NCBI GenBank assembly: GCA_030141605.1
Contig: JAQGDQ010000052.1
Location: 62,001 to 126,000 of the forward strand
Length of the DNA: 64,000 nt
Direction: 5' to 3'
From: Tubiluchus corallicola
Taxonomy: Eukaryota > Priapulida > Priapulimorpha > Priapulimorphida > Tubiluchidae
The position numbers were made by a program, and so were the translations under genes. Of this stretch, positions 34,955 through 64,000 are shown in pieces; within the stretch, counting starts at the first letter, position 1; each line of letters starts with the position of its first letter. The notes under the pieces are model-generated. The model saw nothing but the letters and a program-made list of their open reading frames with translations, searched no databases and had not been told where the DNA came from.

Positions 34955-37900
34955 ATGGTGTCTTATGAGTATGTGTTTTTCTGCATGGCCGGAGTACTCT
35001 TACAGTTAGTGTTACCAATAGTATCTCAGTTAGGTGAGTGAAACAATATATTTGTGTTTTTATTCCAGCTAGATTATCTTGTCAATTGCATTTTTTGAGC
35101 TCAGTGTCATTTCTATTAATGATTTAGTTGACTGTTTTTAAGTGCAGTGAATCTAGCCAGTGTGGCTTATAGCAAATTAACACATAGACATGAAAGAGCG
35201 TTAGGTATTAATTTTTTAAATTACATCGTTACTTGTAAATATGTAAGGTTTATTCTTTGAACTAATCAGTATTGTGAAAAAAAAATGATGATCTTTATTT
35301 GTGATGTTACTAAGTATTGCAATTACTGTTATCATCAAGAAATTTTATTGAATTGTGACTTTTCGGTAGCTAAAGTATTCTTAGTATTTTACATTTTTAG
35401 TGTTATATTTTGGTTTTTAACACCTTAGTTAGGTACTGAAGCCGCTTTACGAAAGTAAAAAAAGGAAATTATCACTGATTTTTGACTTTCTGTCTGTACC
35501 AAAAAGATTATAAGCTTATTTGAAATTCATCATTTAGAGCTTCTTATCACTTTACTATTTACACACGGTTCTTTTTCCGAACTTTTTCACCAAATCTGTC
35601 AGAGGTGTGACATTGTTCTTGATATGAAAAAATAATTTGTCCTGTTGACTAAATAAGGTGTTTGCTAAATTCAGAATCTTAAAATTAGTGATTAAACGTA
35701 TGTTCTAAGTTCTTTATATCTATTCCATCCTCGTTAGGCTCTCTTCTTTTTACTATAAATTGAACCACAAAGTCCATTATGACTTTCTTTGCAGAAGTAA
35801 AAATTTCCTTGTGTTGTCGTTGTTAGACTTACAATGCTTGCCATACCACTACCAAATCGTTTGCATGAAATAGCCTCATAGACTAGTTTGTATGTGTGTA
35901 AAACCTATCTCTTACAGAAGCTTTTCTCCTTGTATTATTTGATACATGTTTTTATAGAGGGCTATGGAGCAGATAGGAACCTGGTTTCTGTGTCCGGAAT
36001 ATCGTCTGGTGGTTGCATGGCAACTCAGCTTCATGTAGCCTTCTCGAGTACATTTATGGGCGTCGGCATCATTGCTGGTGCCCCTTATTACTGCGCTCAG
36101 AGTAACACCATCACTGCTACAACAGCGTGCATGACAACCCCTTCTCTTATATCAGGTATTTTTGTAGGTTATTTGCTTATTTATAACAGTTTCTTATGCT
36201 ATGCATGTGCATACAATTTTCAGGGATGGTGTTTGATCTACAAATTCAAAAACAGCTAGTAGTGTTATTTCTGTTAAATGGTATTCATTCGGAACTAGCT
36301 TAATAGAATGCTGCGTCCAAAAAAGATAGAGCCTGGGTAAAGAAAGAAAAAAGAAGAGCATTTGCTTGCATGTGATACTTGTTGCCTGAATGATATTTTT
36401 ACGCAATTCACAACCATTAGAGTTTGGCTAAATTTTGTTTTAAATTGAAAATACTTGTAAAGCTGAACTAAACCTTAAAAAAAGTTGTTGGTTGAATGAT
36501 GTGATGTTGATAGTTTAAAATGATTGCTTTTCATTGGTATTATGTCACTTTTTCATTATTTTTGTTTAGTCGCATTATTATGGTCTGAAACAACCTTGGC
36601 ACAAAACATTGGTGTCATAGATCATACATCAAACATGGCTGATGACAGGGTGTGGTTGTTTAGTGGAGCTACAGACAGTGTTGTCAATCCAGGTAAATAA
36701 TAAAACAGAACTGCCTTCTTGGTGTCATGCTGTAAACATTCTGTTTCTCTCCTAATGCTTCTGTTATCCTGTGTTTGTTTATCCCTGAATCTGATTATGT
36801 AAATTTAAGCACACGTGTTGTGGCCAGGGCCGGAAAATTTTCATGGACTAGTAAGTGCTTCATTTGACAGAGGGACGTAAAGTTGTACATACAATATGTT
36901 TTCTCAAAATTTTAATAGAAAAAAGTTAGGAACGTCTTCTCTTTATTGTTCCTATTAGCAAAAATGACAAAACTGTCCCACAATTACTCATCAAAGTTAC
37001 GATGTAATTATTACTAAAAATAATGTCTTGGTGTAAGATTTGTATTTTGAAACTTTGCAGCGGCCAAACGCCCACCAACCAGGTCTAATTGTATTTGCAC
37101 ATGTAGTAGTTATTATTGTGGCCATCTCGTTCTAAAAATAGGCCTGCTTCTATAAAGCAGCACAGCTAGCCTTCCAAATCCTACCAATCTGCAGTAGTAA
37201 AATTTTATTACATGATATTTTATACTTAAAAGTGTGATCTTGCTGACTCATTGATTTTTGGTTGGCTTCTAATTATACTATTATAGTTACCATAACTATA
37301 ATTGGTCTAGCCACCTGTGTTACCAACCGGTACAAGTTTTATACTAATATCTTAGATAGAGAGTTCACGGGATAATTGCTTTATAGCACTCAAAAATACT
37401 TTCTTGAGTAGTTAAGCAATGTCAAATGCTAGAAGTGCCCATGTGGGTGAGATATTTTGCAGAATGATCGTTTTCAAGTTGTGTTTTAGCAGTGTGATAT
37501 AAACACTGAGCTAAAGAAAGTCTAACGCTTCTTTCTTAGTATAGTTCTAAGATAGTTCTAAGAAATTTTAACAATAATGTCTAGCGTAAGGTAAAATTGT
37601 CTTGCTTCAGCATCACAGTTTTATATCTGCATGTGTGCTTGATGTGCATATAGACTACTAATTAATACTATGGATGAGTGTGTTACAGTGACTGAAAAAT
37701 GTGTGAAGATAGCAACAATATTGCCAATGAAGATACATGTAAAAACTAACATTTTAGACATCCAAATTTTCATGTGTGGCTCTGTGGTCTTCTCTGTTTT
37801 TGTAATTGTTTCCGGGTTAGGTACATCACCGGGATGCCAACTTTTAATCCTTGGGACATTTATAAGACTTTCTGTCTTTAGTTCTAGCACTGCGTTTGGT

Positions 37901-40900
37901 GAGATATGCTCAAGATTTATTTGTATTGGTGTTTGAACAGGAAATATAGTCATACAGAATGTTAAGAAAAACTTTGTAACCATTTAATTGCTGAGCAGAT
38001 TAACTTACCATGTTTGTTGCCTTTTTCTGACTTTTTTCCTTAAAGATTATAATGCTAAATAAGGTATTGTTTTAAATTCTTATCAAACATTAGCTTAATC
38101 ATTACAGCAAAACTCTGGTGCAAAATTACAGCCTGTACAACAGGAATAGACCGACATTTGTAGTACAAAGGAGAACTTTAATAATTAACTCACGCTTTTT
38201 CCTGCATTTTTGTAGTGTAATTGTTAAGATAGTGCAGTGCTGTAAGTTTTGATTTAGAGTTGAAATGATAGGATTTAATGCCAAAAAATAATCTTTCAAG
38301 TGTTATGGATTTTTTGCCTCAGATGAACGTGTGTTCAGTAATTGTCTCAGCTCGATATTATAGATAGTAATGAATAACAAAACCCCCAAAATATGTTTTG
38401 TGACTGTAAAGTTTTTCTACTTTAAAGGACGAGCAGTTGTGTTTCTTTGCTGAAAATAAAACATGCATGAAACAATACTGTACAAAAAGCAGTATGCCAC
38501 TTATAAACAACTCCGGCAAATAAATATTGACCTCACTCGATAATATGCTCATGTGGTTGAATTTATTAAGTACAAATTATTTGGGTCTGAATGTATGAGC
38601 ATTCAATTTAATACTGTAAATGAATAATAAGAATTGTCCAATCCAAATTCAATTTTAAATCACAATATTATTGAATTAATTATTGTTTTTAGCTGAAGAA
38701 TAGTTGCATAGATTGTCTGAAGCCTTTTTAAGTAAGCAGTAGGATTCGAAATTTGTTGCCTAATTTGAACTTATAGAATTTAAGTATTTTTTTGTGTGAA
38801 TTCACAGGTGTCGTTGAAAAAGTTGAAGAATATTATGAGAATTATGTTCATTCATCCAATATCAAAAGGGTTTATTCTGTGAATGCTGAACATACATTTG
38901 TAAGTAATCCAAAGATAAAATGTAATGGTTAAAATTATGTGTTTTGTTGGTTGCTCTGCTAAATTGTAAACTTAAGTTTAAAGAGTCAAGATTATAACAC
39001 TTGTCTCACAAATCTGTTTTATTAACTACCCAATGGATTCATTTAACCATTTGTATTGCTATGTGTTAAAAACCTATCTATTACTTTTGTGTTAAACTGA
39101 CCTAGTCTTCTAGGTATACTGTAATAGTTCAGTTATTTGGATTTTCCATTTATCCTGCGATTGCTTTACTTAGCTGTCAGTGCACTCTCTGGACACACCC
39201 CTAGTGTTCATAGTTTATATGTATTTTAACTCATGTTGCAAGGTTGACGTTTGAATCTAGACATCAGAAAAGTGTTGCCGTAACAAATTGAGTGTGTTAT
39301 CGAGTGAGATTGATATTTATTTGCTGGGTTTGTTTAGAAGTAGCATGTTGCTTTTTGTATAGTGCTGTTTTCAGCGAGTTTGTGTTTGTGTTTCCCATTA
39401 ATAATGTAACCTCGGAATTTATTCTTGTTTTATTGTCACGACAGCATTTTTTGCTCATACTGCTACATACTTTTAGAGACAACAATTTAGAAAAAAATAA
39501 TATTGTTGTTTGTCTTTGTGTTTAGCCTACACTTGATTATGGAGGTGCTTGTACTTCAAAAGAGCTTCCTTATATTGGGAAATGTAATTATGATGCTGCT
39601 TACGAGATGCTGAACCATATCTACGGCGATGGATTAATGGTATGATAAAAGTTTTGTGATTTGTAAATTTGTGATCTGTCATTGCAGTGCAAAAACTAAA
39701 GCTAAACAAAGTGCAGCTTTTGAGGTAAGATGTTATTTGAACATAATTTATTAAGTTCGCATGTAACGTCACTACTCGCTCGAACAAAACCTACTCATTA
39801 GAGATGATACACAATTTTTGAATGTTTTTTGCATTTTTCTAAGTTGTGCTTTCAATAGCAAAAATGTTTCGGCAATTTTTACATAATATAGAGCGGATCT
39901 CTAGAGTAAAAATGAATTGCATTAAATTGTGCAAAACCAACAACGCTAAATATGCTTTGTAAAGTTCCAAATGTGAGAAGCCAAAACCAGTTACAAAATT
40001 ATATTTTTTTATATTTGGAAACTTCTGTGTTAACATTTTTACCACTTACTAAAATTCACTTTCAAAATAGATATTTTATAATGTTGTCTTTGATAAAAAC
40101 TACATGTAGAAAAAAAACGCGATTTCTACAATCTTTCAAATAACTTTCTTCATTCGAGCTTGTTCATCAAATAATGTCTACAATAATTTTTACAATTTTG
40201 CAGTGTTTTAGTAAAAAAATTGATAGATCAGCAAATTTTTGATTGGCTAGTTTTAGCTCATGTTTTACACATTATTATTTTGTAGAGACCGACTTCTTCA
40301 ACATCTACTCCCGGAGACGTAAGTAACAGTTACTTGTTTATCAATGCATTATTACTTGTTAATAATAGAGTCCATGCAGAAGTAGCACAAACAAATCATT
40401 TTGCCATTTGTAAAACCTGAATTATTTATTCCTTTACTTGATATTAATAAGGGGGTGCACATACAAACTATTTTTGCTAAAAAAACAAAAAGGTGATGTT
40501 GTTTGATGTTCAGACTAGTAAAATTCACTGTTTTAATTTAATAACATCTAATGGACAATATGCGATATACAATTTTGCGTGTGTAAATATGTAAAGTGTA
40601 TGAAAATAGTTGTAATTTCCCAGTTTTTCTTTTTTCCAAGCATGTCTCTAGCAGGTATATTTTATTATGCTTTTTCAGTTTATACTGTTTGACACAAGAG
40701 AATTTTTTGTAGCCAGTCCTGGATCTTACTCAATGGACACTTACTCTTATGTTTATGTGCCATCAAGATGCAAAACAAATAGTGGTAAGTATTTTCAAGT
40801 TAAATTACATAAAAAATAAAACCTATTTTAAAGGAATTGTGTGTCTGCATTTAGAAGAAATATTGTCCATTAAGTCATTCTGGGGAGCCTAGCTAATTTA

Positions 40901-43470
40901 ACAAAGTTACTTACCCTGTGCATTAGCTGTTGTTTCTATTGTATCTAGCTTTTTTGGAGTGTATCCAATGCTGACTAATTGTTATCTAGCATGAAAGTGC
41001 TGTTTTGTCATACATGTTCGCTTAATTGTTTTAATTTTTTTCTAATAACTCTGATGTTTGCATCACGTCATTTCACTATGTTTGCCATTCATAATATCGC
41101 TAACGTGCTCAACGCCGTAAAAGTTTCATTTTTGGAAAATAAATAGAACGAAAAGCTGATCAAGTAATCATTGTATAATTATTGTTTTATTTGTTGGTCA
41201 AAAGAAAATAACTATGAAAAGATTGCAACAAGAAAACTTAAAACAAGAAAAGCATACGATGCTTATGTAATACACATGTGTACTTGCTGGTATACTAATA
41301 CAGTGTTACTTTGCATATTCTCAGGATGTAAAGTTCATATTGCACTACACGGATGCTCACAAGGAAGGTACGAAATATCTCACTGATTTTTATTATTGAT
41401 TTGTAGACAAACAGAATATCATATTGAACAATATTTGTGTTGTTAGGCTATCTAAAACATTATGTATGGCCAAGATATTGGCAGTTTGTGTTTGTAGTTT
41501 CCTTTTTGTTACATACCAGCTAACTTTTTACTGAGATGATTCAGAAATGAAAATATTTTTATTACGTAAGAACTTAGACCGCTAGGTATTTATTATTTTA
41601 CATTATTCGAATTATGCGATTTGTGTTTTTTGTACATATTCCAAACAAGGTCATTTGCTACTCTAGATAATTGGCCACTGTTACAATGTGAAAATACCAG
41701 CAGAACAATATTAATGCAATGTAATAATATAATGTAACTAATTTACTAGTGATCAGGGTATCTGCTGACATTCTTCTTGAAGTAGTGTTCACAGGAGAAA
41801 TTTTTCTGGTAAGGAATTTGATAAATGATGAGCTCAAGGAAAAACATGGATTTATGAACAGTAGTTTTGCACCCATTATATTCAAAATGCAAATAAGAGA
41901 AGTAGCAGCAAAATGAATATTCAAAACAAACAGGTGAAACTTGGGAAGTACTTGATGAGGACAGGTATCAAAGAAGCTTCATTTAGCAACTAATCTTCAA
42001 CTAGAGACTGTTGAAGCCTAACCCAGACAGACTGACAGTAGGATTTTGCAAAGGTAACAAAGGGCTAAGGTAACAAACTGAAGCACTAGCTCCGATGTGA
42101 CTGCAATAGTTCATGCAAGATCAAATGGATGATTTGAAAAGACACCTTCAGGTGTAGGATAATTGCGAGCATGCTACACGCATTCTATTTTCTTTGTAAA
42201 CGTTACATTATATCACTGTAAATACTATGTGAATTCATTATCATGATTATTATGCACATATTTTAATCTGTTGTTCTTAGCTTTTCTCAAGTGTAAAGTA
42301 CCAGACAAAAAGTAGCAATAGCAATAGTTTCACATTTATTTGGGTCCGCTAGCACACACATTCAGTTTTTGCATTTGGAGCAAAATTTAAACACCAGTCT
42401 GACTCTTCTGAGACACAATTAATAGTTCCTCAGTTTTTTTTGTTTTCTACAATAGATCTTTTATCCTTGCAGCCAATATCCATCAATTTTGGAAGCTTTT
42501 AGGTCTAAGGTTGAGGTGATATGGGCAACAGAATGATTAGAAATTGAAGGATCTGCTGTTGTTGAAAATAATGGAAGCTGCTGTCATGCTTGCACTGTTT
42601 CTAAAAGATCTGTTCTCATGTGCAAGTGATATTTGTCTCAGTTTGAGTTAGTCAATAATTTAGATAGGTGGTAATAATTTCTAATAGTTTCTTTGACTGC
42701 TATCTTGTGACTTCGCTGCTGACATATGATGAAGATTAGCCCAGCTTGCAACAGGAATCAGAAAAAATTGTCTGCAAAAGTTATATACTGTAACAAGCAA
42801 ATTTTGTTGCTTCAAAAAATCACAAAAATTTCAGTGTTATAAGGACACTGGCAAACTTCTGCTTCAATTTTTATTGGACGTTGTTTCTGTAACTGTGAAT
42901 TTTATATGTAGACATTCACTCGGTGATGAGTATGTCAGGAACACAGGATATAACGAAGTTGGTGAATTAAATGACATCATCATCCTCTATCCCCAAGCAA
43001 CAAAATCAACCTTTCCGTACAACCCCTATGGCTGTTGGGATTGGTGGGGTTACTCAAGTGTCAACTACCGTGAGTAGAAATTATTGCAGTTTTGTATTAA
43101 AATAACTGATTTTAAAACTGTTCACTTATAAGTGTAGTTAACATTGCTTTTTTATTTATTTATAAGAGCAGATGTTAGAGTCATTGCTAAGACTAACTTC
43201 TTTATTTACTTGGTGTAAACTTACTCTTTTAAAAACTCACTAAAGATACTAAGTTTTACCTATTTTTATAATTTATGTACTTTTTACATCACTTGACAAA
43301 AATTGTTAATAGATTTTGTAAATAAAACTTAGTACCGTCAGGTGATTTAGGCCTCCATTGTTGTCAGTAACTAGCTTGTACATAAAAACAAAGTTTTTGC
43401 TTTTTCAGCAAACAAGCTTGCACCACAAATGGTTGGAATTGAGCGTATGCTACAGCGTATTCTCTCATAA
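34955..43470 (+). CDS. PHB depolymerase-like secreted esterase, copy A
   Basis: Ten exons: 34955-35033, 35958-36155, 36570-36692, 38808-38899, 39526-39639, 40286-40318, 40679-40784, 41325-41367, 42912-43069, 43409-43470. All junctions are GT-AG and in phase; 1008 nt, 335 aa. Residues 1-26 are a signal peptide ([17 protein letters not shown]). The nucleophile is S42 in SGISSGG, with S43 as oxyanion partner. The acid is D128 in LFSGATDSV, the base H162 in NAEHTF, and the second oxyanion residue C259 in [10 protein letters not shown]; the [11 protein letters not shown] motif follows. Having LHGC after the triad is the circularly permuted type II order of Penicillium funiculosum PHB depolymerase (Ser39, Asp121, His155, Cys250, from memory), a protein of similar size. 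Predicted role: extracellular hydrolysis of polyhydroxybutyrate or short oligomers; the true substrate in an animal is unknown. No separate substrate-binding domain is present. AATAAA occurs at 43532. Confidence 0.93.
37621..37983 (-). other. Unassigned open frame in esterase A intron 3
   Basis: A 120-codon open frame on the minus strand with a hydrophobic stretch ([19 protein letters not shown]) that could cross a membrane. A second open frame lies on the opposite strand. No family is recognised, and it is as likely to be chance or a transposon remnant as a nested gene. Confidence 0.2.
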
Positions 43471-43775: not shown

Positions 43776-43873
43776 AGTTTAGTGGAAAATCCCGATATCT
43801 GAATGTGTGAATACGTCTGTTAAAAGTTTAGTGGAAAATCCCGTTATCTGAATGTGTGAATACATCTGTTAAC
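43776..43873. repeat. 49-bp tandem duplication
   Basis: The unit with GTTTAGTGGAAAATCCCG and TGAATGTGTGAATAC occurs twice in direct succession with two base differences. Confidence 0.85.
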
Positions 43874-45362: not shown

Positions 45363-45429
45363 GTCTGGTAATGTATTGTTTCGTACAAAATAACAACTCA
45401 AACAGGACATTTTTTAAATTTTTCTGATA

Positions 45430-47386: not shown

Positions 47387-50300
47387 ATGGTGTCTTACGC
47401 TCATGAAATTATTTTTCTTGCTGGGGTATTCTTGCTGTTAGTACTACCAAGTGCAGCCCAGTTGGGTGAGTGAAATAACATATTTATGATTAAATAAATA
47501 CTACTAAACCAATAAATTTTCCTATCAATTGCTAACTGACTTTTTTCATGTTAGCGAGAGTAGCCTATTAACTTGCATGTAACAAATTTACATCAGATGC
47601 TAGATAGTGCTTGTCTTGGAAACATTTGTTTTACAAGGCTAAACCACTTCCAGTTCTGGAACTGATCAAAGTTGCAACAATCTTGGTAATACATAGTTTC
47701 ATTTATAATGTTGTTAGTTATTTGTACTGATGAGCTTCGTCTAGGAAGTTTTGTATGTTGAGTGCTGTCTTTCAGCATTCACCACATCATATGCAAAAGA
47801 TTGTTTCAAATTAATGTATCTTATTTTTCAAATCTAGTTCAATCACTCTGTTTTGGTCTCACTGTTTGTACCAACAAGTCACCAATTTGAAACCTTTTGA
47901 CAATTTAGCACAGCTCCTTTCATTCAATTTTTTTTTAATCTTTCACGAAATCTGGTTCTTCTCATCCATTCTGTCCCACTTAAGTACATCAATTTTTACT
48001 AAATTTGATGCCTGCTTTAGTGATTTGGTTTCTGTTTTCAGTTTAAGTATTTTTGTTTCTCCTTCAAGCACTGCATGTACAGACTTTCGGAGTGTACAGC
48101 TATGCTTGTAGAAGTTTTTTATTTTGTAGAGCTAAGGGCTTTGCTATCAGTGGGTTTCCCTTCTAATCATATCTATGCTTAGACTTGTTGTACAGCTATA
48201 TTTGGTGGCATGCAGTAGTTTCAGTGTTCGTTTTGTATTTTCGTTCACACAACCAATTAACCTTACCTAAATTTTATTTATTATATCATTCACTATCGAT
48301 ATTCTCATAGGGGGCTATGGAGCAGACAAGAACAAGGTCTCTGTTTCTGGCATATCTTCTGGTGGTTGCATGGCAACACAACTTCATGTGGCATTCTCAA
48401 ACACGTTTATGGGCGTTGGCATTATTTCTGCTGCCCCTTATTACTGTGCTCAGAGTAACACAGTCACTGCCACAACAGCATGCATGAAAACTCCATCACT
48501 TATATCAGGTACTTATGTTACAATTTTCAGAGATGTAACAATGAAAATTGTCAAAACTAATTTCACAAACAGTAGCGATACTGTTATGAAACATAGTTAT
48601 GAACTGCTCAGAATTAATAAAGTAACTTTTTATGTGTTATTATGTGTTGGAAATTATGCAGGACTGGTCCAATGACAGATTTATGCAATACTCAATCAGT
48701 TTTTATTCTATCAAGGAGTTTTCACAGTGCATTCCAATGTACAATGTGACTGATCTGGCAGTCAGTCATCTGTTTTTTTTTCTACAATGATGAAAAACAA
48801 TTTATTTTTCCGTTGTATAATCTTAAAATTGCTTCCAAAATTCTTTGACTAAATAGGTTCAATTTATGTATAAATTGATAATTGCTGTTTGCATTTTTCC
48901 ATTTGTGTCAAACTAAGTAGTGGTCATTTTCTGCAGTTTTCAATTTAGGCTATGCTTATAAAAGTGCCTAAAATTTATCGACTCAGATGTGAATGAGTTT
49001 TATGTAATTGTGTTAGTCGTAAATAACTATGTTATAAAACAGCAATTATGCATGTACTGCAAAAACTGTAAATTATCCACATGTAATACTTGAATGACCC
49101 CTTACTTTAAATGAGTGATATTTTAATAAGTGTTAGAATTAAAGTTTTTAAATTTTGGTATATAAATATTATTGTGACTGCTTCTGAATCATTTTGCCTT
49201 TCATTGTTTATATTTAGTGTCAAAATTATGGTCCCAGACAACCTTGGCACAGAATACTGGTGTCATAGACCATACATCAAACATGGCCCATGACAAGGTG
49301 TGGTTGTTTAGTGGAGCTGCAGACAGTGTCATGGATCCAGGTAAATAATAAAAGTTTTAAAGTGAACAGCTGTTATAATGTCAAGCTGTAAAACTTGTTT
49401 TTTTAGATACATTGTTATAATTCATATGTTTAACTTCTTTGTTCTATTTACTACATACATCTATACACATGTACCGAGTGCTGTGGTGGTATGGTATAGT
49501 GAAACAAATTCTCATCTGAAAAACGATGTATAATATTGCACTACAAGAACTTCTGTAACAGTTTAATTGCTAACCCGTCTATCAACTCTCTTTATTTATT
49601 AATTTACTGTCTTTATCTATCTCTTTATCAATTTACCTTATTAATTTTTTTTGCTAAACTGAAAATGCTTAATAGTGTAATGTTTTTAATCAAATGTGAA
49701 ATATCAGTTTTTCATTCAAAAATTATTGCAATATCATGGAAAATTCTAATTTTTTGTTGTGTATTGGCCTATATGGTATTGCTTTTGGTTTTGTGTAATT
49801 TTTGAATTTATTTTTAACTTTATAACAAACCTGTAGCAAAATGGCAAATTCTTGTAATAAAGTAAATCCTTTTTATGCAATGCTGAGTTACAGTGTGAAC
49901 ATTAGTGTATTAAATTTTCTTATTTTGGAACTAAATTGTAAAAGTGAAATTAAATTTTGAATCACAGATTTCATCACCTGAAACAGATTTCATCACAAAA
50001 TTTTGCTAAAGCATTACTGAATATCTGATCAATTTTCTTCAGTAATGTCATGCTGCACTTTCAGTATTACTAACACATTTGGTTGTAACTCATTACATTA
50101 AATCTTTGTCTGCTCTGAATAAGCAGGTGTGACGGAAAAAGTTGAAGAATATTATGGGAACTACGTGCACTCATCCAATATCAAAAGTGTCTTCTCTGTG
50201 AATGCTGAACACACGTTTGTGAGTAAGCTTAATACTGAAGTCGAATGTTTGAATAAGGCTATTTTAGTAATATATTAGTTTTAATTGTAAGTTTTGTGGA

Positions 50301-53300
50301 CATGAAATTGTAATGCTAGTCTTACTACACTAGACGCCGCGTAATAGATTCCAGGTTAATAGACTCAATCGCTTAATTGACTCAAAAACATATTCAAATG
50401 TACATAAAAGCTGTCGGTAATTGGCTCAAATAACTCCACATAATTGACTCAATATTTTTGTTTCACGTGCTTCAATAGACACTTTCGTGTGACTAATAAG
50501 CTATTATGACTTTTATATCATCTTAATTCGCTTTTGTCCTATAATATACATAGAAACAATTATGTTAAGTACCGTTTTGTTTGTAAGCAGGAATTTTTAT
50601 CATATGCTAATGGTTTGCTTTGACCTGTCCGTCCACTGCAACTAACCTCGTTACCCAAGAATTCCTGGAAGCTAAACATTTAATCACTTGTTTAGAGGTT
50701 TGCTTTTGAAGCTCTGGCTGTCTTAGCCAGACGGTTTAATCAGTTAGATGTTGCTGTTGTGTTAGGGACGTACAGTGCAGTAAGTACATCACGATAGCAA
50801 GCGGGAACTTAGGCGAAACTTCAGACGAAGTTACTTGCGGCGAAACACGGGCTCCATCAACAGTTTAAGCACGCCAAGCACTAAGTATTTTACAAGAATT
50901 TATGCATCATACAACAACAGATTTTCAGTGTTTTTATCATTATCAGAACTTTGTGATCCGACTTCTTCATGATAAAATGAAGCAGCCGACTTTGAAGGAA
51001 TTTTTATAACTTTTGTAAATAAACAGATTTGTGTGATTTAGAAAAGTATACTTGTAATTTATTCAATTCAACTTCAATTTATTTATCTCTTTATAGTGTT
51101 ACAATAAAACATGATTAATAAAAGAATCTCTAATAAGTTTTGAAAAATGGTTAAAATGTATAGATAGATCTAGAACTAGAGAAAGGATAGCGAAAAGACT
51201 ATAAAGTCACCTAGTCTGCTATCCTTTACCGAATATAGATAAAAATATTTTTAGACACTGGTGGGCATTAATGTTATCAGTTTAATTTAGGAAACATTAG
51301 TAATTCTTAAAATTATGACATTTTCTATATAATCCAGAGAAAAGAATATACATGTAGTTTAATTAGCGGGCAACAAAATAAGGTCAATCTTGATTAAACT
51401 AAAAATTGCATTTAGATTTTATTTGAAATACAGGTCAAAATTATTATGAAATGGTAAAAACACTTTGGGTTAATAATGCTATTAATCAACAACAGGAGTT
51501 AAATACATTTTGATTTGAGTTCAACTTCATTATTTCTAGGCTTATTGATTAAGAACAAATCTACTGACTAGGACAATAATACTAAGTAATATAATTCTCA
51601 ATATACTGATATGACAAGCATTTAGCTATACAGGTTTTTTAGTAATTTTATAAAGGAGAGGTAAGACTTGTGCAATCTGTGAACAACACCTAAATCTTTA
51701 CTCATAAAATAGTATTGCAGTATGACTTTAATAATTACTCTGCTGTAAAGAATTATTGCTAATTCACTTACATAAATTAATATTTTAGAATATTTTTTTA
51801 ATTTTAACTGCACAAACGAATTTAGGCATTACTTCATTTCTAAAATTTATTAAAAAACCCTGGCAATGCATACTAAACTGGTGATCATACGTCTATACCT
51901 GTAATACTACACCCATCGGTTAATAGATTCAATGCTGTTAATTAGGTCAAAACACTTCGGTCCCAAAGTGAGTCTGTTAAGCGGCGCCTACTGTACTGTG
52001 TTTAGTAACTGTACTCAGTGGATGCATTTGTACCATTCCATTTATTTCAATATTTGTAGCAAACATAAAATATGTAGCTAAAATATGTAGGTCTACTATA
52101 ATGATCCAGTTGTGTGAATTGTGTATTGTTCTAGGACCGGGGTACTGTTGTGTTGTCATTAGTCCACTCTCTTAGCATCGAGTTTTGCCTATTACTAGAA
52201 AGCTATGTATATAGTGCAATAGAGATTGTCTGGAGTAATTTTTGCCAGGATTATGTAACGCTTTGGAGGCCTTCAGTAATTTTCGCCAGGATTATTTAAG
52301 TCCTTTGCTGTATTTAGTAACTTCACTGAAACTTGCTGCTTACAGAATTCCAGGTACACGGTTTCATGAAAGACAACACATGGAAGCAATAATTGGTTCC
52401 TTTTGTGTTTCTTTGCATACTAGTTCCTAAAGTCACATTTAAACATGCTAAACTTTCTTTTTTGTAGGTAATAGTTGTACCACACTACTGTTAGTTTGTG
52501 TATAGGTCATATTCTGTGTAGGCTTCCAGTTTTGAAATTAGCCTTGGAACCTGAAGTTCGTGAGGAAAGTGCAGAGACAAACTTAAGTGTCTTATTCGAA
52601 GTTTCGAATGATGTAATTACTGTAATGCTGAGCATCTTGTTTAATAGTAGTGTGCTAGCTTGTGTGGTACAGTAGTGTTCCAAGCAGCTTTATTTGCCTT
52701 GTATGTTGTTATGTAGTCTGGAATTTAATTGCTGTGTTTTTGACACACAGAACCTTTTGCCCACATTGCCAATTCCCGGTTAAGGGAAAATAAATACTTG
52801 ACTATTTGGACATAATTTGTTGTTTTTAGCCAACTCTTGATAATGGGGTTGCATGCACCATGAAAGAGCTTCCTTATATTGGGAAGTGTGACTATGATGC
52901 GGCTTACGAGATGCTAAATCATATCTATGGTGGTGGATTAATGGTATGATAAAACTTTAGTTCACAAGTTAAAAAATTAATAATTTTATTTTAGTATAGA
53001 TTGTAATATGTATAAGCATTTGTGATCTGCCATTACAGTGTTAAAACTAAGCAGCCTCAAGATGATGTAAAATGTAAAATCTAAAGTTGTAAAATGACGT
53101 TGCTTCACGAATAAATTTAAATAAGTATGAGCTAGGGTGTCCTTTGTTTAAAATGAAATTCAGTAATTAGCTATTTAATTAGAGCTGTATAATTAATTGA
53201 TTTTAAATTTCATGTTTCCATGAGCCAATCAAGTCGAAACTTGTTTGAAGTATGTCATTGGTTCAAAATAAAAAATTCATTAGTAGTAATTCATTAATTA

Positions 53301-56300
53301 GTAAGTTTTTAGATTTAAACTGCGTGTTTCAATAATCAAGCCTCATTCATTTGATGACCTACAGTGGGTTCTGGTGCACTTCTGGCACTTATAATTGCAA
53401 GCCTTGATGCTCCCATGTTAAACTTTTATATTTTGTCTGAAGAGAAAATTTTCATATAAGTTTGGTTTAAAATTAATATAGGTTTATTAATGAAATAGTT
53501 TTATAATCTATTGTAATAAATAAACCAGATCTCCAGTAGGGATGAAAATTTATGTGCAGCTGTTGAATACTTTCTTTTTTTCTAAAGAATGTGCTTTGAG
53601 TTAATTTTTGCATTTTTGGATGAACTTTGAGATTAAAAATGAATTGTATTCTTTGTAAAGCTAATGATGCAAACTCGGCTTTTTAATGTGCACTTGTAAG
53701 AAGTTAGTGCCCATTATAAATTTATATAAGTTTTACAATTCGGAGACCTTTGAGTTGAAGTTTTGATTATTCAACAGCAAAGTCAATTTAGTGTAGTTTC
53801 TTGTTTTCTTAAGAACACTAACAAACTGTCTTAGTGTGACTGTGTATTCCGGAGTGATTGTTGTCAGAGAATACTACACACACACAAGTCTAAAGCTTCC
53901 CTTCACTTTTGACGCTTCCTCTTGAGGGCTGTCAGAGTGGCTGTTTCATTGTGGTTTTAACTTATTGTTTACAGTGGTTTCTTGTCCTAATTGATAATTT
54001 ATTTTGGTATCCGGTAGTTTAGTACTTTTTTGTGGCTTTTCAATAGTGTCTCATTATTCACTTGTGATGTTTTTGGTTTGTTGTCAATACTGTGTCTGTT
54101 GGTACATTAGGAGAGTCCTATTCTAGCTTTTCTCATTTTAATAATTGTAAGCTAATAGTTTTTGTATTTGTGTGTAGATGTATGTAGTTGACTAGTTTTG
54201 CTACTTTTGTTATTTTATATGAAGTTTTTGACTTTGGGTGTACATTACAGTTTTTACTAATAGCTTAATACTTGTTTATATTTGTCTGTGGCATTGTGGT
54301 ATGTAGTAAAGTCTAGCCATATATGTTAACTCAATATTTAGCATTTCTTTTCTTAGAAAAGCTGGAACAATGGAGGAAACAATCACTTTTACTAACCGCT
54401 TCTTATACTGACTGCAAAATGTGTTTCGAATCAGTTTTGTTCTCTCACCTATAATGTTCTATGAGCTATGAAATAAAAATTTCACTTAACAATTTTTGCC
54501 TCTGCCATCACACAAACAATCTTTGTTAAAAAAAGCATAGTCTCTTAGGAATTAGTTTTGACAAAAACAGAAAAAAATATGGATTCAGTCTGACCAACAA
54601 GTCGTTTTAATCAAATAAGCCAAGACTGAGTGACACTTGCTTAATAATCATGCCCAAACAATTTTGCTAAACTCAGAAAAGTTTTAGTAAAAAAATGTAG
54701 AAATAATTGTTTTATGAAGGCTGTATTTGGCTCATGTTTTACATGTTATTATTTTTCAGAGACCAACCTCTTCAACGCCTACTCCAGGAGATGTAAGTAG
54801 TAGTAGTTCTTTTTTTAATACTTTTTCACTTTGTAACAATGACAACGACTAGCATATAAAAATTGAAAGAAAACTGGTGTTTGTTAAGAAGAGAAAGGCT
54901 TGTCAAAAATGTGCCTACTGAGGATGGTAGAGAAGTGGTCAAGCAAGTGCAGTAGCTGATAACTAACAGGTCTCAGTATGTGATATAAAAAAATTTTATG
55001 TGCAAAATTGAAAAAATATTCAATTTATAAATTAGCATTCTTATGGTAATGTGACTCCTGGTTTTTCTTTTGTTGCAAGTGTGGGCCATTAGCTTCAACA
55101 AATATATATATTGTTATTCATTTTCAGTTTATAGAGTTTGACACAAATGAATTTTTTGTTGCCAGTCCTGGATCTTACTCAATGGACAACTTCTCGTATG
55201 TTTACGTACCGTCAGGATGCAGAACAAAGAGCGGTAAATATTCTCAACTTAAATTACATAAAAGCAGAGCTGATTTGAAGAAATTAGAAATTTCTGCATC
55301 TTGAAGGGAAAATGTCCATTAATTAATTTAATTTACTAACACTCAATTAAAATTTACAGATAGTGTGTAACCATAGAACAATACACAATTATACAACACA
55401 ATGAAATATTGCGTTAAGAATAAATAAATTTTTGAGTGTTTTGGAGACACAAAGAGAAAAACTACTTACTTTATATTTGAGAACATTAGCAAGATCAACT
55501 AAACACAATCTTTTGCAGAATAATTTGTTGATTAAATCTCGTATAACTTAGTATGCCTCACTGTTTTTAAGAAGTTATTTTTTGTGTGCTTGTAACTAGT
55601 GTCTTCTAGAAACAAAGCTGTGCTTAGCTGCTTTTTCTGTTTTTCTCTAGCGATTTTTTATTGGACATTTTAGCTGTCAAAATTGCTATCAAAATTTAAG
55701 CAGCACTGAAGGCAAAATAAGAGTGGGTATCAAAATATAATTTAGACATTGCTGATAACCATCATATTTAAAAGTGACAAAAACGTTTGTATAGGAAAAA
55801 ATAAGCTAAGTTATTTTAAGTGTCATGGCACTGGTATCTCTAGCACATTTAACAATGCATGTACGTCTGTTGTAAAATGCAAAAAAGGCTGTTGTGTCAG
55901 AATTTTTCTCTCTTACCCACAAATGAAATACTACTGTATCAGAACTTGCATTAGCAAATTTACACAAATTGCAGTTGACTGTACATTACAAGCAGCCAAA
56001 AATAACCTTGAAATATATCAAGTAAGGAGGCAGGTAGTTTACTTTTTGAACTGTGTTTGTATAGAAACTGTGATGCCTGTATAGTGTTCCATTAGGCTGT
56101 TTGAACAATTTTGGTGTACTGAGTACTCCTGCTAATCAAATCTGTCATCTACAAGCAGGCTGCTTGCCACATGTTTCTGGGTTTTTTCAGACACATTAGT
56201 TAAATGTAATAATTAACCCTTCTGGTTAAATTTCATGAACATTATGTTTAGTCCAGGTTAGGGGTTACTAAGCAATTTTCGTACATGTTTGCAGTTATAA

Positions 56301-59300
56301 TGGTTGTTTTAGTATTGCTATTGTAACTTACAAAAACATTTCATACAAAGTATACTAACTCGGGCACCCTTTAGTTAGGGCTTCCATAGCTCATGGCTTT
56401 TGTGCAAATGAGTGAAATGATAGTGATTTCAGTTCATGGTTATCCATGTTTACTATTTGATCACAGAGCCAAAGGCAAGCCCATATGAAGCAAATTCAGT
56501 GCATGAGGCCAAATGCTAAAATGGGCCCATAGGTATTAGCGAAAAAGTCCCACTCTGACCATTCCCATAGGCATTAGCGAAAAAGTCCCACTCTGACCAT
56601 TTTTTTGTTATGCGCTAAATCAACTGTTATCCTTAAGATCCAATTGCTGGTAAAATGACGAATATTATATTGTGACTTCTATTTAATGTTTTATAAAGCC
56701 AGGCCTATAAAACTGCAAAAAACTACATATCTAGAGCTCACCTACAATGCCAGTAAAAATACATCAGTGTTACATACAATTAAAAGATTACAATTTCTAA
56801 GGTAGTGTAGTTAAAAAAACTTAACTGTAATTACAGCCACTTCACAAAGATTTGCTATTATTTATAGAAATGTAGAGCTGCTATCAATTATAGATCATAT
56901 TTTCTACAACTATATACATTTATAGAAATCTAGCACAAAGAATACTAGGTACTAGGCAGGTCTTAGGATAGGCCCTTTGGCAAGTTGTAAGGGCTTAACT
57001 ACATGAAGTTTAAAAGGCTCGTTTAAGCGCACATAAATATGAGGGGGCCAGGTCACTGCTCTCCTCCCCCACTTCTTACAGTCCTGAAAGAAGCAGCAGT
57101 AGGTTTTGGTATTCTTTTTCTTTCGAACTTCACATTGTCATGCAGTATACCCATTCTGCTAAGGAATCAAAACTGTCTTTGGTAAAGTGCAAAGAGCAAA
57201 CAGTACTGTCTGAGTATCCAATTCATTTCTATCGATCACAGGTACGAATCTGCTGTTCTTTTACAGTTTTTCCTTTGGAAAACATCAAAATGATCACATT
57301 TTGTCAGAAGTACTGTTTGAGCAGCACAAGGCAGCCTGGCAGTGAGACATTTGAAAGGCAGGAATGATTAGAAAACAGAATTTAAGATCAGAATTTAAGC
57401 ATGCTGCAATGTCCTAATAAATATACCTGTGATCTCACACTAAAACTTTCTCATGCTGTACCTCTTTAGTAAAATTGTTTTCATCTATTGCGTAAAGTAC
57501 ATTGAAAAGGTGCTGACAAACCTGTGATTTGAGCTCAACATTAAAAATACATTCAGTGCTCCTTTAAGCTCCACAAAGTGCGGCCTTAGGAATTTGTCAA
57601 TAATAAGCATTTAATCAACTTAGCCTTCTTTTTGGCCTTCTCCTAACAGTCATATTGCTGTATTTATACTGCTTGACATCACTAATATAATCTGTGTGGT
57701 GTTAAAGCTTTATTTTCACAAAATAAATAGAAAAACAAGCTGATGATGCAATGCTGCATAATTATTTGTTTGTGTAACCAAAATGGAACCAAAAGAAAAG
57801 AAGTGTGAAAAGACTGCAACAAGGAAACTTAAAATGATAATAATAGTGACACTAACATAGTACATGTGTATAATAACATGTTCTACTTGCAAATATCACG
57901 ATTCAATATTGCAATTTGTCATATTTTCAGAATGTAAAGTACATATTGCACTACATGGATGCTCACAAGGAAGGTATGAAGTATCTCGTTATTGGTTTTT
58001 AAACAACTCGATGTGGAATAGAATAATTGTCCTTTTGAAGTCAGGTTAGCTAAAGCATTTTAAAGTGATAATACGTAGCTGGTTGTTTCTTAGCTCTTCT
58101 TTCCTTGATACTATATAGCATTTTCCTGAGATGATTCAGGATTGTATTCCTAATCAGGATTCAGGATAATCATTATGATAAATATCTGAGCTGATGCCAT
58201 CTGTATTTTTTAATGTAAATAGTGCCAAAGAAGGCCAGTAGTCCATTTAGGTAAGTGGCCACATTTACAAAAAGAAAATGGGAGAACAGATCCAAAAAAT
58301 AGAATTCTTATAACTAATTTGTTGGAATGAAACAAAGTGTCTTTTGACATTGTTTCAATTTGCATCCTGTCAGACCCTATCAGATTGATAATATGACTTG
58401 CAATCTGTCAGTAGAAGCACTCAGGCATCTGCCTGATGTGGTTGTTGTGCTTCAGACAAAGCTGGATAGTGGACAAGCAAAGTCTTGGTGACTTTTTCGT
58501 TTAGACACTGATTGTTGCAACAGGTGGTAAGCAAATATTTGACACTTGCTTTGGTCTAGTGGTAAGGATAAACATTTGCGATGTTAAACTTTTTAGGTTT
58601 TTTGTATGGGTAACAGTTTGTTTACTGCTGCGATAGAACTGCAAATAGCTGAAAAGTAACCTTTTTACTAATAACTATTTGGTATTACAAATTACAAAAT
58701 TTTAACGATTTAAATTTCTTACTATTGCGTTTTATCTTTTATACCTGTAAATTTTAAGGCAGGATGAGTTTGCTAACTGTTTTTAGCATTACCATTTATA
58801 GCTCTAATGTTGATAAACATTATTCTGCATTTTTATACTGTTCAATAATTCATTGTTATTAAAATGATTCGTATTTAATATTATTTTATTTTGGAGATAG
58901 ACACACTGGTTTTTGTGCAACCATATTAGCCTTAACCAACAATCATCAACAGTCTGACTTGCAGAGACCTTATTGGCAACTTTTGACCAATTGATTTTAA
59001 TTTGTAATGCTTAAATCTCGTGAAATCAAGGAAAGGTGTTGCAGTTACCCTGCATGTTACTCAGGTGTAGACACGTAGATAGAAGTGTCCAAGACTGCTT
59101 GCTGCAGCTACGTTTGTGTATGTAAGCACACTCGCAATTGGCTAACATGGTACCTGGGGTGTGGCCTCACAGAGGTTACTTGTCCAGAAAAACAGTAAAT
59201 ACTCATTTGGTAATTTAGGAGAGCTCCAAAGATCCTACTGATTGGATGCATAATAGGATGGTAATTTGAGTAATCTGTATTCTTACTGGTGCATTTTATT

Positions 59301-60425
59301 TTATGTGCAGTGATAACAGAAGCTATTTTCTACAAAGATATGTGAATTGGTCATACATATGTTTGATAATCTGACCAGCAAAGATACTGTAGACGTGCTC
59401 ATTTTAAGGCGATTCCTGGAATACCCTCACATTGAGAGGTGTTTTACATATGGATTTGGGAAGATATGATCAACCTTTCTAAATTTAGGAATCAGTTTGG
59501 TGACAATAATTTTATTTAGGCCCACTGAGGGGGTGGTGCAGCCTGTTTTTGCAGTGTACAGGGAGCCACATACAAAAAAATTAAAAAGCACATCAGCTTT
59601 GTTTATAAAGTGAACAATATATAATTTTATGCAAGTAAAATAGTGACTTATTTTATGTACAATACATTGCATAGATTTTTGTAGTTTTTCACATGTGCTT
59701 ACTTGATAAGGTATTCCAAAACTAGCTTAATTTCATTTTACACTAGGCTACCAGCACATTTCTCTCCCTTCTGTGGACCTGTTTCTAACAGCTTCTTTAA
59801 TTACTGTATATCTTGACATTGGTACAAACATATGAGTGTAAGATTAGCCTAACTGGCAACAAAATTTACCAGGAAAAATTGCCTACAAAAGTTAGATAAC
59901 TGCAGTAGGACAATTTGATTTATTAAAAAATTAATTGTACATTTTATTTATAGGCACTCGGTTGGAGATGTATTTGCCAGGGACACAGGATATAATGAAG
60001 TTGGTGAATTGAATGACATCATAATCCTCTATCCCCAAGCAACTGATTCGACCATTCCATTCAACCCTTATGGCTGCTGGGATTGGTGGGGTTACTCCAG
60101 TGTCAACTATCGTGAGTTCTAATTGTTGCACTTCCCTGCTGAAATAACTTACTTTAAAACCGGTCACTTATAGGTGTAAATAATGCATCACTGTTTCACA
60201 TGTAGAAATGCTTGTTTGAGTTTGATCCATTTTGCGAGGTTCTGTAATGACAGAATATGTGTTACTAAATTTTATGAACAAAAAATGTAGTTAAATGAAC
60301 TAATTTAGGCATTTAGTGTTTTTAGTAACTACTTTGTATTAAAACAAAGTTTCACCTTTTCAGCAAACAAGCTTGCACCACAAATGGTTGGGATTATGCG
60401 CATGCTGGAGCGCATTCTCACATGA
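47387..60425 (+). CDS. PHB depolymerase-like secreted esterase, copy B
   Basis: Exons: 47387-47465, 48311-48508, 49218-49340, 50127-50218, 52830-52943, 54760-54792, 55128-55233, 57931-57973, 59954-60111, 60364-60425. Each exon has exactly the length and phase of its partner in copy A, giving 335 aa. Signal peptide ([18 protein letters not shown]), SGISSGG nucleophile (S42), D128 in [10 protein letters not shown]162 in NAEHTF, C259 in [10 protein letters not shown] and [11 protein letters not shown] are all kept. By eye exon 2 differs from copy A at 8 of 66 residues and exon 3 at 9 of 41. Sites near the active centre are the most conserved, which suggests both copies are under selection. Introns are longer than in A, and intron 4 carries a Tigger-like element. 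ATTAAA at 60592 may serve polyadenylation. The 5' flank resembles that of A (CCACTGACCTAGCAAT before ATGGTGTCTTA). Substrate as for copy A, unproven. Confidence 0.93.
50328..51993. mobile_element. pogo/Tigger-like element with transposase relic
   Basis: A 1666-bp element with TA at both edges (50326-50327, 51994-51995), left end CACTAGACGCCGCGTAATAG and right end complementary to GCGGCGCCTACTG. Within it, about 50815-51008 (+) translates to GETRAPST, one stop, then [12 protein letters not shown] and [11 protein letters not shown] before a stop. That is the character of a Tigger-type transposase C terminus. The catalytic DDE region is gone, so the element is dead. It lies in esterase B intron 4. 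Confidence 0.75.
51065..51757. mobile_element. Secondary insertion inside the Tigger copy
   Basis: About 690 bp here has no counterpart in the shorter Tigger copy at 29.3 kb, while both sides align. It begins with TTCAATTCAACTTCAATTTA, which on the minus strand reads like the TGAA-rich 3' end of a LINE. It also contains a hairpin AAAGGATAGC against GCTATCCTTT. Probably a 5'-truncated LINE on the minus strand; family unproven. Confidence 0.4.
56526..56601. repeat. 38-bp tandem duplication
   Basis: CCCATAGG(T/C)ATTAGCGAA then AAAGTCCCACTCTGACCATT occurs twice in direct succession with one difference. It lies in esterase B intron 7. Confidence 0.9.
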
Positions 60426-61385: not shown

Positions 61386-64000
61386 ATGGCTAATGCAGTT
61401 GTAATAACAATTGTGCTAGTTTTGTTTTCAATAGCAACGGCTGCAAAATTGGGTAAGTGGAACCTTTTTAAATCTTACACTGCAAGAATTGTTTTGCCGT
61501 CATTAATAATTATTGCTAATGAGTAACATTTTAAACAAGATAGTGTTTTAATGGTAGTTATTATTTAATACATGATTAAAGTGTTTTTTTTTTAATTTTG
61601 TGCATATCAATAATTATGGACGGAATGGAAGTAACTGCAAATTTATCTTTAGTGGTATAGAAAAGTTGACGTTTTAGAATTGGACTGATTCTTGTATTTT
61701 TAGATTGTATGTATAGTCCTAAATAGCTACTTACAGGGTTAGGCATAGTAATAGTACATTTTCTGCCATTTAATATATACACTTTTTATTTAGAAAGAAC
61801 TTGCTTTAAACAATTTGCACCTTATTTAAAAATACATTATAAATTGTTATTGTGCATATAATATTTGCAAATACCAGGTATAAAACTAGCATGAAAATAC
61901 TTACTTTATGATAATAAATTTTGTATTTCAAACAAAATGATGTTTAAAACAAATAGTTGCCATTTATTTTTCTTTTAACAGTAAGTTAGCCTCTCTGTTT
62001 CTTGTATGTAGAGCTTGAACATGATAGCCTTGCTTGCTGTCAGTGGTAAAATTTTGGGGAAAAGCTGTGCTTATTGTCTGAATGAAGCCACTTAACAAAA
62101 TACAGCTTTTCACTTAAAACACAACTCGATCACTATGTGTGCATGTCAGCAAAGACAAGTGCAACAAACTGAGGTGATATGGAATTTGAATCACTCACGA
62201 CTTCAAGTCAAACTTGGCATATTAGTCTTATCAGCAATTGGCAAGCAGCTAATACTGTCGGATGTACATGATTGCCTCATGATTGTTTTGTAAAATGGCA
62301 TTTCTGATTAGTTTAATGATGTTGTATAATAGTATATAAATGAGTGAGTGACAAATTTAGTTGAATCCATCTTTATAGCTGCTAATTTGGTTTTCATAAA
62401 CTTGTTAGGGTCAGTAGTGTATTTGACATGTTTTAGGTTATGAATACTGTTGACACTCTTGGCAGATAATGCTGTAAAAGCTTAGGGAACATTGGTTCTC
62501 ATCATTAATACTGTTAACTGATTACTGTTTGTAAAATCTTATGAAACAGGTGGTTATGGTGGGGACAGAACACAAGTTTCTGTATCAGGCATGTCGGCTG
62601 GTGCATTTTTTGCTACTCAGTATCATGTCATTCACTCAAGCAAAGTTATGGGGGCAGGAATCATTGCTGGAGGTCCATTCTGGTGTGCTAGAGGGAACTT
62701 AATGACTGCTCTTGGTGCTTGCATGACATCTCCTAACAGCATTGACAGTAAGTTTTCAAATGCATGCATAACAGTATCTAAACTGAGTAGTGATTACTGG
62801 TGTTGGTTAAGTATCACAGAATATTTAATGCAAGTATTATATCACAAGAAGTATTGATAGAGAATGCAACTAAGCACTTATTAATTCTTGATAACAGAGG
62901 AAGGTTTCTTATGTGCATGTGTTTTATTAATAACTGCAGCTCACAGTGATTTATTTAACTTATATACCTTTTTTGTAAAAAAGCCAAAGTGCCCATTAAG
63001 TCTCAAATTTCTTTTATTTTATACACAAGCTTTTGTCCTTCAGGTCTTCATCAGCTGAAATCAACTTGTATGACCTACGAAGACCATTTCACTATCTAGG
63101 CCACACAAGTTGATTTCAGCTGATGAAGTTCATGAAGAACTAAAGCTTCTGTGAAAAAAAATTGAGATACCTAATGGGCACTTTGACTTCTTCGTGAATA
63201 TGACCATGGCAAGTGTCAGAACAGCACTATCTTATTTCCAAGCTACATGTATACACTTTTTGATGTGTACACATTGGCATACTGAAAGCCGAATTGCAGC
63301 ATTAACGGCAAGATATTTATGGCATGTGATACATGTGCATATGATATTTATGACCCAAGCATGACTCAAGGATAAACGTCTAATATGAGCCACTGGACCA
63401 GCAGAGGTGCTCAACCACTTTTCGATATATATACATCATCCTTTCTGATTAAAATGGTAAATAAAACGACTCAAAGCAAGTATCACACTATTTGCAAGCC
63501 ATGATGCGTGCGTCCGTATCCACTCAGCCATGAACTATGAGTTGGGTATGTACATTGTAATTTGTGCACTAAGTGCAAAAAGCGTTGCGCTTCCTTCTTT
63601 GTATTTTTTAAGTTTTATGTCGAAGTTTAGACTCTAAAGCATGAATTGTTATGCATGTCTCAAATCTAGAATTTACACTGTCTGCAAATTAATATGTGGA
63701 AAAGGCAGTAAATTATCACTTTGTTTTAAATTGCTTTAAAATTTGTCTGATTACATTGCAATCGACTACCATAAGTTTGACATATAATTTAATTTATACA
63801 TTGAAGATCACCTGAACCTGAAAGCCCCCGAAGTGTAAATGTGAACTGAATTATAAGCAAGTAAATAAATACACATTGGAAATAGTGGTTTTAAGTCAGC
63901 TCTACATGCACAATTGTGTCATTGGCGATATCCACATTGTTTTTTAGATGGCAGACTGTTTGATCAGACAGCGACTTATGCTGCCAACAGCCAAATTGAT
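61386..64000 (+). CDS. PHB depolymerase-like esterase, copy C (partial)
   Basis: Exon 1 61386-61452, exon 2 62550-62747, exon 3 from 63948 to the window end; phases 1 and 1 agree with genes A and B, and exon 2 has the same 198-nt length. The signal peptide is shorter (22 codons before the splice, VVITIVLVLFSIATAA). Exon 2 reads GGYGGDRTQVSVSGMSAGAF, keeping the nucleophile Ser in GMSAG but with Ala where A and B have the oxyanion-side Ser. PFWCARGN matches PYYCAQSN of A and B. Exon 3 begins NGRLFDQTATYAANSQID. The Asp, His and LHGC residues lie beyond the window, so activity cannot be judged. It is clearly more diverged than A and B are from each other and represents an older duplicate. Confidence 0.88.
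62985..63185. mobile_element. Hairpin-type MITE
   Basis: Two arms of roughly 85 bp are inverted copies, starting CAAAGTGCCCATTA and ending at the complement TAATGGGCACTTTG-like sequence. The best-matched inner part is CATCAGCTGAAATCAACTTG. A loop of about 35 bases separates them. No target duplication is evident. It lies in esterase C intron 2. Confidence 0.7.

What the first reader, a model, noticed from the sequence alone, without database searches (positions are those of the whole stretch)
34955..64000. Tandem animal genes for type II (circularly permuted) PHB depolymerases
Two complete genes and one partial gene encode secreted esterases with the whole catalytic set (S42, D128, H162, C259 in A and B). 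The LHGC oxyanion motif lies after the triad, as in the fungal Penicillium funiculosum enzyme and unlike type I bacterial enzymes. Ten exons with conserved phases show this is a settled animal gene family and not contamination. PHB is a bacterial storage polymer, so the enzymes may digest dietary or symbiont PHB, or act on a host ester. Family assignment rests on motif order and length; the substrate is inference.
Basis: partly seen in the sequence, partly recalled or inferred. Interest (0 to 1): 0.8.

Follow-up and report, generated by a model that had tools for sequence, protein, structure and literature searches.

The report
Animal genes resembling PHB depolymerases
This animal carries a small family of intron-containing genes whose proteins closely resemble the fungal and bacterial enzymes that break down PHB, the storage plastic of bacteria, so the animal may be able to digest bacterial reserves with enzymes of its own.

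Summary
Genes A (34955-43470) and B (47387-60425) each splice from ten exons into exactly 335 residues with identical intron phases. Gene C starts at 61386 and ends outside the window; a fourth paralogue, D, lies on another contig. Both follow the same ten-exon plan, D's first exon being the weakest part. All four pass NCBI's cut-off for 'extracellular catalytic domain type 2 short-chain-length PHA depolymerase' (324-366 bits; cut-off 280). A matches the solved Penicillium enzyme 2D80 over 26-334, E 2.7e-49. S42, D128, H162 and C259 fall on 2D80 S39, D121, H155 and C250 and are kept in all four. Type-1 models match in swapped order, as a permutation requires. A and B are under purifying selection (dN 0.093, dS 0.677). 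The four form one clade of unresolved origin. The genome has Wnt genes, so the owner is an animal; its phylum was not found. Best reading: secreted PHB depolymerases, probably digestive; PHB cleavage and secretion are inferred. New member of a known kind, in an unusual owner.

The parts
34955..43470 (+). Gene A, complete, 10 exons: 34955-35033, 35958-36155, 36570-36692, 38808-38899, 39526-39639, 40286-40318, 40679-40784, 41325-41367, 42912-43069, 43409-43470; 335 aa, type 2 PHA depolymerase
   Evidence: splicing; family, catalytic residues. One search aligned protein A back to its own DNA and gave the same exons, a check of the script rather than independent evidence
34955..35033 (+). Gene A exon 1: start codon and hydrophobic N-terminus (signal peptide-like)
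   Evidence: hydropathy; no signal-peptide predictor was available
35958..36155 (+). Gene A exon 2: lipase box G-I-S-S-G with catalytic Ser42
36570..36692 (+). Gene A exon 3: catalytic Asp128
38808..38899 (+). Gene A exon 4: catalytic His162
41325..41367 (+). Gene A exon 8: LHGC oxyanion motif with Cys259, after the triad in sequence
42912..43069 (+). Gene A exon 9: GCWDWWG motif, aligned with 2D80 W305-D306-W307
47387..60425 (+). Gene B, complete, 10 exons: 47387-47465, 48311-48508, 49218-49340, 50127-50218, 52830-52943, 54760-54792, 55128-55233, 57931-57973, 59954-60111, 60364-60425; 335 aa, 83% identical to A
61386..64000 (+). Gene C, 5' part: exons 61386-61452 (read by eye), 62550-62747 and 63948-64070 (cut by the window end); continues to the window-equivalent position 69659 (C1027:131659); 343 aa in all

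Best explanation
A tandem array of three genes, plus a fourth elsewhere in the genome, encodes secreted single-domain serine esterases of the type 2 (circularly permuted) short-chain-length PHA depolymerase family. Ser42, activated by His162 and Asp128, attacks the ester of a 3-hydroxybutyrate chain lying in a hydrophobic crevice. The main-chain amides of Ser43 and Cys259 hold the oxyanion, and water releases 3HB oligomers or monomer. Shown here: gene structure, family membership by sequence, intact catalytic set, purifying selection on A and B. Inferred: secretion (hydrophobic N-terminus only), hydrolysis of PHB or 3HB oligomers, and use in digesting bacterial reserves taken as food or held by symbionts.
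For: NF050059 at 365.7, 357.9, 353.4 and 324.4 bits for A-D against a curated cut-off of 280. PDB 2D80 over A 26-334, E 2.7e-49. S, D and H of the triad in 4 of 4 paralogues, in 2D80 and in 45 of 45 bacterial relatives used (45 of the 47 fetched); the oxyanion Cys in 4 of 4, 2D80 and 44 of 45, one row being gapped there. The roles of 2D80 Ser39/Asp121/His155 and of the Ser40/Cys250 amides, and the hydrophobic crevice for one polymer chain, are stated in PMC5445757 (passages). W307 and eight cysteines kept in all four and in 2D80 (that W307 lines the crevice is recalled). dN 0.093 against dS 0.677 for A-B. N-termini of A, B and C are the most hydrophobic stretch of each protein; D's does not count, since its exon 1 was picked by hydropathy.
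Against: No activity, expression or localisation data. No linker or substrate-binding domain, which PMC2666664 gives as the common architecture of these enzymes (passages). A and B have Cys46 where 2D80 and 44 of 45 bacterial relatives have Tyr or Phe; C has Phe at 305 where 2D80, A, B, D and 45 of 45 bacteria have Trp, so crevice and preference may differ. No class I PHA synthase was found in the assembly, so no PHB-making symbiont is seen there; this is weak evidence.
Confidence: 0.7

Rival explanations
1. The proteins are active esterases of this fold but their natural substrate is another ester (a host lipid or metabolite, a dietary polyester, or only short 3HB oligomers), with PHB cleavage lost or incidental.
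For: Cys46 in A and B and Phe305 in C are changes near the catalytic Ser and W307 in sequence; no substrate-binding domain; duplicates often diverge in substrate. PHA-cleaving activity in mouse and chicken organ extracts has been put down to lipases (PMC5059232, abstract and passages), so activity on such a film alone would not prove a natural PHB substrate.
Against: W307, eight conserved cysteines and the full catalytic set are kept; all four score over the family's curated cut-off; the fungal enzyme is matched over residues 3-314 of its 318-residue solved chain.
Confidence: 0.2
2. Some or all copies are non-catalytic or decaying duplicates.
For: Substitutions at Tyr43- and Trp305-equivalent positions in some copies.
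Against: No in-frame stops or broken splice sites in the four gene models; triad intact in 4 of 4; dN/dS for A-B about 0.14.
Confidence: 0.05
3. Bacterial or fungal contamination, or a very recent transfer from a bacterium.
For: The relatives found here outside this genome are bacterial or fungal (no eukaryote collection was searched); the tree gives the animal genes no resolved sister.
Against: Nine introns per gene, shared by four paralogues; an 825-kb contig, with a class A GPCR and an RWD-domain gene in the same window; best-segment identity to the 47 bacterial loci 40% or less; animal clade with 100/99 support.
Confidence: 0.03

Closest known systems
Penicillium funiculosum PHB depolymerase (PDB 2D80/2D81)
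   Same: Same order of lipase box, Asp, His and oxyanion Cys; eight conserved cysteines; W307; E 2.7e-49 over A 26-334
   Different: Animal owner; nine introns in a fixed pattern; Cys at the Tyr43 position in A and B; shorter loop before the GCWDW motif
Bacterial extracellular dPHA-scl depolymerases, catalytic domain type 2 (NF050059; Acidovorax, Comamonas, Delftia and Streptomyces exfoliatus examples listed in PMC2666664)
   Same: All four animal proteins score over the curated cut-off; best bacterial locus hits 40% identical in their best segment
   Different: No linker or substrate-binding domain in the animal proteins; introns
Type 1 dPHA-scl depolymerases / Esterase_PHB (NF050058, PF10503)
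   Same: Weak homology of both halves; A and B reach 24.5 bits for PF10503, cut-off 23
   Different: Halves occur in swapped order, as in a circular permutation, and NF050058 scores (76.2-92.5 bits) are below its cut-off of 150
Lipase-like PHA-copolymer-degrading activity in mouse and chicken organ extracts (PMC5059232, abstract and passages)
   Same: Animal enzymes acting on a 3HB-containing polyester
   Different: Attributed by its authors to lipases, not identified as a gene; no link to the type 2 family was made in the passages seen

Membership tests
Extracellular dPHA-scl depolymerase, catalytic domain type 2 (NF050059) | Score over the curated cut-off of 280 bits | tested here: met
   A 365.7, B 357.9, C 353.4, D 324.4 bits for the spliced proteins; single exons searched in the raw genome stay below it
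[quoted passage not shown]
   C259 after S42, D128 and H162 in A; same order in B-D; PF10503 and NF050058 halves matched in swapped order
Extracellular dPHA-scl depolymerase, catalytic domain type 2 (NF050059) | GxSxG lipase box with hydrophobic residue before Ser (PMC2666664) | tested here: met
   GISSG in A, B and D; GMSAG in C
Extracellular dPHA-scl depolymerase, catalytic domain type 2 (NF050059) | Ser-His-Asp triad | tested here: met
   4 of 4 paralogues, by alignment with 2D80
Extracellular dPHA-scl depolymerase, catalytic domain type 2 (NF050059) | Signal peptide | tested here: inconclusive
   Hydrophobic N-terminus in A, B and C by hydropathy only; D's exon 1 was itself picked by hydropathy
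Extracellular dPHA-scl depolymerase, catalytic domain type 2 (NF050059) | Linker and substrate-binding domain (common architecture, PMC2666664) | tested here: not met
   Proteins of 335-359 aa end at or soon after the end of the family model (matches end at 331-333). The 318-residue chain of 2D80, which PMC2666664 lists in this class, is likewise matched to 314, so this is usual, not strictly defining
Extracellular dPHA-scl depolymerase, catalytic domain type 2 (NF050059) | Hydrolyses denatured short-chain-length PHA | not testable with these tools
   Needs recombinant protein
Type 1 dPHA-scl depolymerase (NF050058) | Score over the curated cut-off of 150 bits with oxyanion motif before the lipase box | tested here: not met
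   92.5, 89.1, 76.2 and 83.5 bits for A-D

The most novel reading that the evidence does not exclude
Type 2 PHB depolymerases are an old, vertically kept and locally expanded digestive gene family of animals, letting them harvest the carbon reserve of bacteria with their own enzymes and without gut microbes.
Probability: 0.45. Interest if true: 0.75.

Novelty: new member of a known kind. Interest (0 to 1): 0.52.

Why it matters
PHB breakdown is usually credited to bacteria and fungi (general knowledge); one reference title seen speaks of PHB-degrading bacteria from the gut of aquatic animals as protective agents, and one paper puts PHA-film cleavage by mouse and chicken extracts down to lipases (PMC5059232). 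A host-encoded dedicated depolymerase with an intact active site would change how PHB feeds, bacterivory, PHB-storing symbionts and the fate of PHB plastics in animals are read, and it can be tested with one recombinant protein.

Tried and rejected
Contamination and pseudogenes were considered and rejected (rival explanations). Pfam PF10503 searched over the whole genome gave 0 matches (it rang in 2 of 14 control genomes), probably because the genes are split into short exons; the spliced A and B do match it, at 24.5 bits just over its cut-off of 23, so the Pfam result alone would have been weak support. NF050059 over the whole genome gave 14 exon matches, none over the cut-off, all in A-D. 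A viral-contig scan with A found no relative (4 stretches matched a pattern, 0 confirmed).

The owner's phylum was sought and not found: COX1 PF00115, 0 matches; mollusc haemocyanin PF14830 and GFP PF01353, 0 matches each, but nothing rang in the 14 controls either, so these say nothing; 18S rRNA RF01960 gave a machine error twice. Class I PHA synthase TIGR01838: 0 matches in the assembly (other classes not searched).

A fungal-plus-animal clade is not rejected (p-AU 0.116), and no bacterial group is a supported sister; origin is left open. Two of 47 bacterial loci (L052, L053, fragments) were dropped before the trees and the residue counts, leaving 45 of 47; these loci were fetched by exact peptide patterns of A, so they are a biased sample.

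Gene models of C and D: the first spliced alignments split the weak exon 1 and exon 2/3 regions in ways that do not fit the common plan (C 12 exons with query A, 11 with B; D 12 with A, 16 with B). The final models take exons 2-10 of C from the run with B, exons 2-10 of D from a run with C, and exon 1 of both from inspection. In the first tree D carried a wrong exon 2/3 junction; it was replaced. In one search the C-termini of C and D were cut at a guessed end with no stop reached; the stops came. The pair statistics, the alignment, the second tree and the hydropathy use the shortened C and D (7 and 22 residues missing). Synonymous divergence with C and D is saturated or failed to compute.

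Literature: ten searches. Several found hundreds of papers or more, of which at most 25 were listed. No listed paper, by title and start of abstract, reports an animal gene for a PHB or PHA depolymerase; [quoted passage not shown] The library holds open-licence papers only, so this is not proof of absence. From recall only: sequence databases hold unreviewed animal proteins annotated as such, so the family is probably not unseen.
Full report
What was claimed and what is there. The finding names two complete genes and one partial gene at 34955-64000. Three-frame readings and explicit splicing give gene A at 34955-43470 and gene B at 47387-60425. Each has ten exons, nine GT-AG introns, phases 1,1,1,0,0,0,1,2,1, and an open frame of exactly 335 residues. 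Gene C begins at 61386. Its first two exons and part of the third lie in the window; the rest was fetched from the same contig. It has the same ten-exon plan and 343 residues.

A fourth gene. Searching the whole assembly with the exon carrying the lipase box and with all of A found four loci: A, B, C and one on another contig, C1080. The last, D, has the same plan and 359 residues; its exon 1 is the least sure part, picked by hydropathy from two listed candidates. The family model NF050059 searched over the whole genome gave 14 exon matches, all in A-D. These searches read exon by exon and score only the best candidates, so weak copies may be missed. Placed on the protein alignment, the nine introns have the same phase in all four genes; eight fall on the same column and the fifth within two columns, beside a gap.

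Family. NF050059 (extracellular, catalytic domain type 2, short-chain-length PHA depolymerase) scores 365.7 bits for A (E 2e-109), 357.9 for B, 353.4 for C and 324.4 for D, with a curated cut-off of 280. Type 1 (NF050058) scores 76.2-92.5 against a cut-off of 150. Among solved structures A is nearest to PHB depolymerase 2D80 (E 2.7e-49, residues 26-334 on 3-314 of 318) and to 2D81; the next hit, a feruloyl esterase, is at 2.8e-07. That 2D80 is the P. funiculosum enzyme is stated in passages. Pfam's Esterase_PHB matches A 17-80 to profile 83-142, and B 238-312 to profile 5-71 as the best of two stretches each: the two halves are in swapped order, which is the permutation itself.

Active site. 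In an alignment of the four proteins, 2D80 and 45 of the 47 bacterial loci, A S42, D128, H162 and C259 align with 2D80 S39, D121, H155 and C250. The triad is present in 4 of 4 animal proteins, in 2D80 and in 45 of 45 bacteria; the Cys is present in 4 of 4, 2D80 and 44 of 45 (one gap). PMC5445757 (passages) states that Ser39, Asp121 and His155 are the catalytic residues, that the amides of Ser40 and Cys250 form the oxyanion hole, and that one polymer chain binds in a hydrophobic crevice. W307 and eight cysteines (C72, C84, C173, C184, C244, C250, C259 and C304 in A) are shared by all four animal proteins and 2D80; that W307 belongs to the crevice is recalled. Differences: Cys46 in A and B where 2D80 has Tyr43 and bacteria have Tyr (37) or Phe (7) of 45; Phe in C at Trp305 (Trp in 45 of 45 bacteria); Ala in C at Ser40 (Ala also in 3 of 45 bacteria).

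Owner, age and selection. The assembly has 92 matches to the Wnt family PF00110, all listed as over the cut-off, and 0 of 14 prokaryotic control genomes rang (that Wnt is restricted to animals is established knowledge, not tested here). The window itself holds a class A GPCR (19836-20822) and an RWD/Prp3_C gene. Outside the A-B pair the four paralogues are 44-51% identical and share their introns, so the introns predate the duplications. A and B are 82.7% identical with dN 0.093 and dS 0.677 (NG86; YN00 gives 0.097 and 0.643): strong purifying selection. With C and D synonymous change is saturated or could not be computed, apart from C-D (dN 0.545, dS 3.208).

Origin. The four animal proteins are one clade (bootstrap 100, SH-aLRT 99). 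Their sister is not resolved. The nearest bacterial rows by path from A are a Woeseiaceae and another gammaproteobacterium, at more than 2 changes per site. A clade of animals plus fungus costs 5.2 log-likelihood units and is not rejected (p-AU 0.116). No other eukaryote could be searched, so transfer from bacteria and old eukaryotic ancestry both remain.

Mechanism and role. Best supported: secreted serine esterases that cut 3-hydroxybutyrate esters. The family, catalytic set and constraint are shown; substrate, secretion and digestive use are inferred. No class I PHA synthase was found in the assembly, so there is no direct sign of a PHB-storing symbiont in the data.

Known or new. The enzyme family is well known in bacteria and a fungus (PMC2666664 passages; PMC11893044 passages). 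PMC5059232 (abstract and passages) reports that mouse and chicken pancreatic and duodenal extracts cleave a film of P(3HB-co-4HB) and ascribes it to lipases; so animal enzymes acting on such polyesters are on record, but not, in what I saw, a dedicated depolymerase gene. The Olavius algarvensis host study (PMC5117596, passages) describes digestive enzymes of a symbiotic worm; 'depolymerase' does not occur in its main text. Ten searches of the open library listed no paper on an animal gene for a PHB depolymerase. That is limited evidence, and from recall unreviewed animal entries exist in databases. I file it as a new member of a known kind.

Noticed in passing
G000, contigs C2, C14, C457, C628, C1781, C1850, C2066, C2159, C2185, C2200, C2228, C2254, C2271: One Wnt exon appears with an identical score (91.3 bits) on 13 contigs, at the same coordinate on three of them; another Wnt gene is on three contigs (C2196, C2262, C2263). 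The assembly seems to hold repeated copies of the same sequence, so 343.5 Mb may overstate the genome. The four depolymerase loci were each found once.
   Followed up: no
G000:C1030:434830-508314: A cluster of several Wnt exon sets within about 74 kb.
   Followed up: no
window 19836-20822: Rhodopsin-family GPCR in one open frame of 329 aa (PF00001, E 6e-32).
   Followed up: partly
window 3338-4000: Open frame of an RWD-domain / Prp3_C protein.
   Followed up: partly
window 29393-30152 and 50368-52078: A shared dispersed repeat, the second copy lying in intron 4 of gene B (by translated similarity).
   Followed up: no
window 30499-30888 and 44950-45424: Two short, closely similar tandem duplications with offsets of about 210 and 240 bases, the second between genes A and B (by translated similarity).
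   Followed up: no
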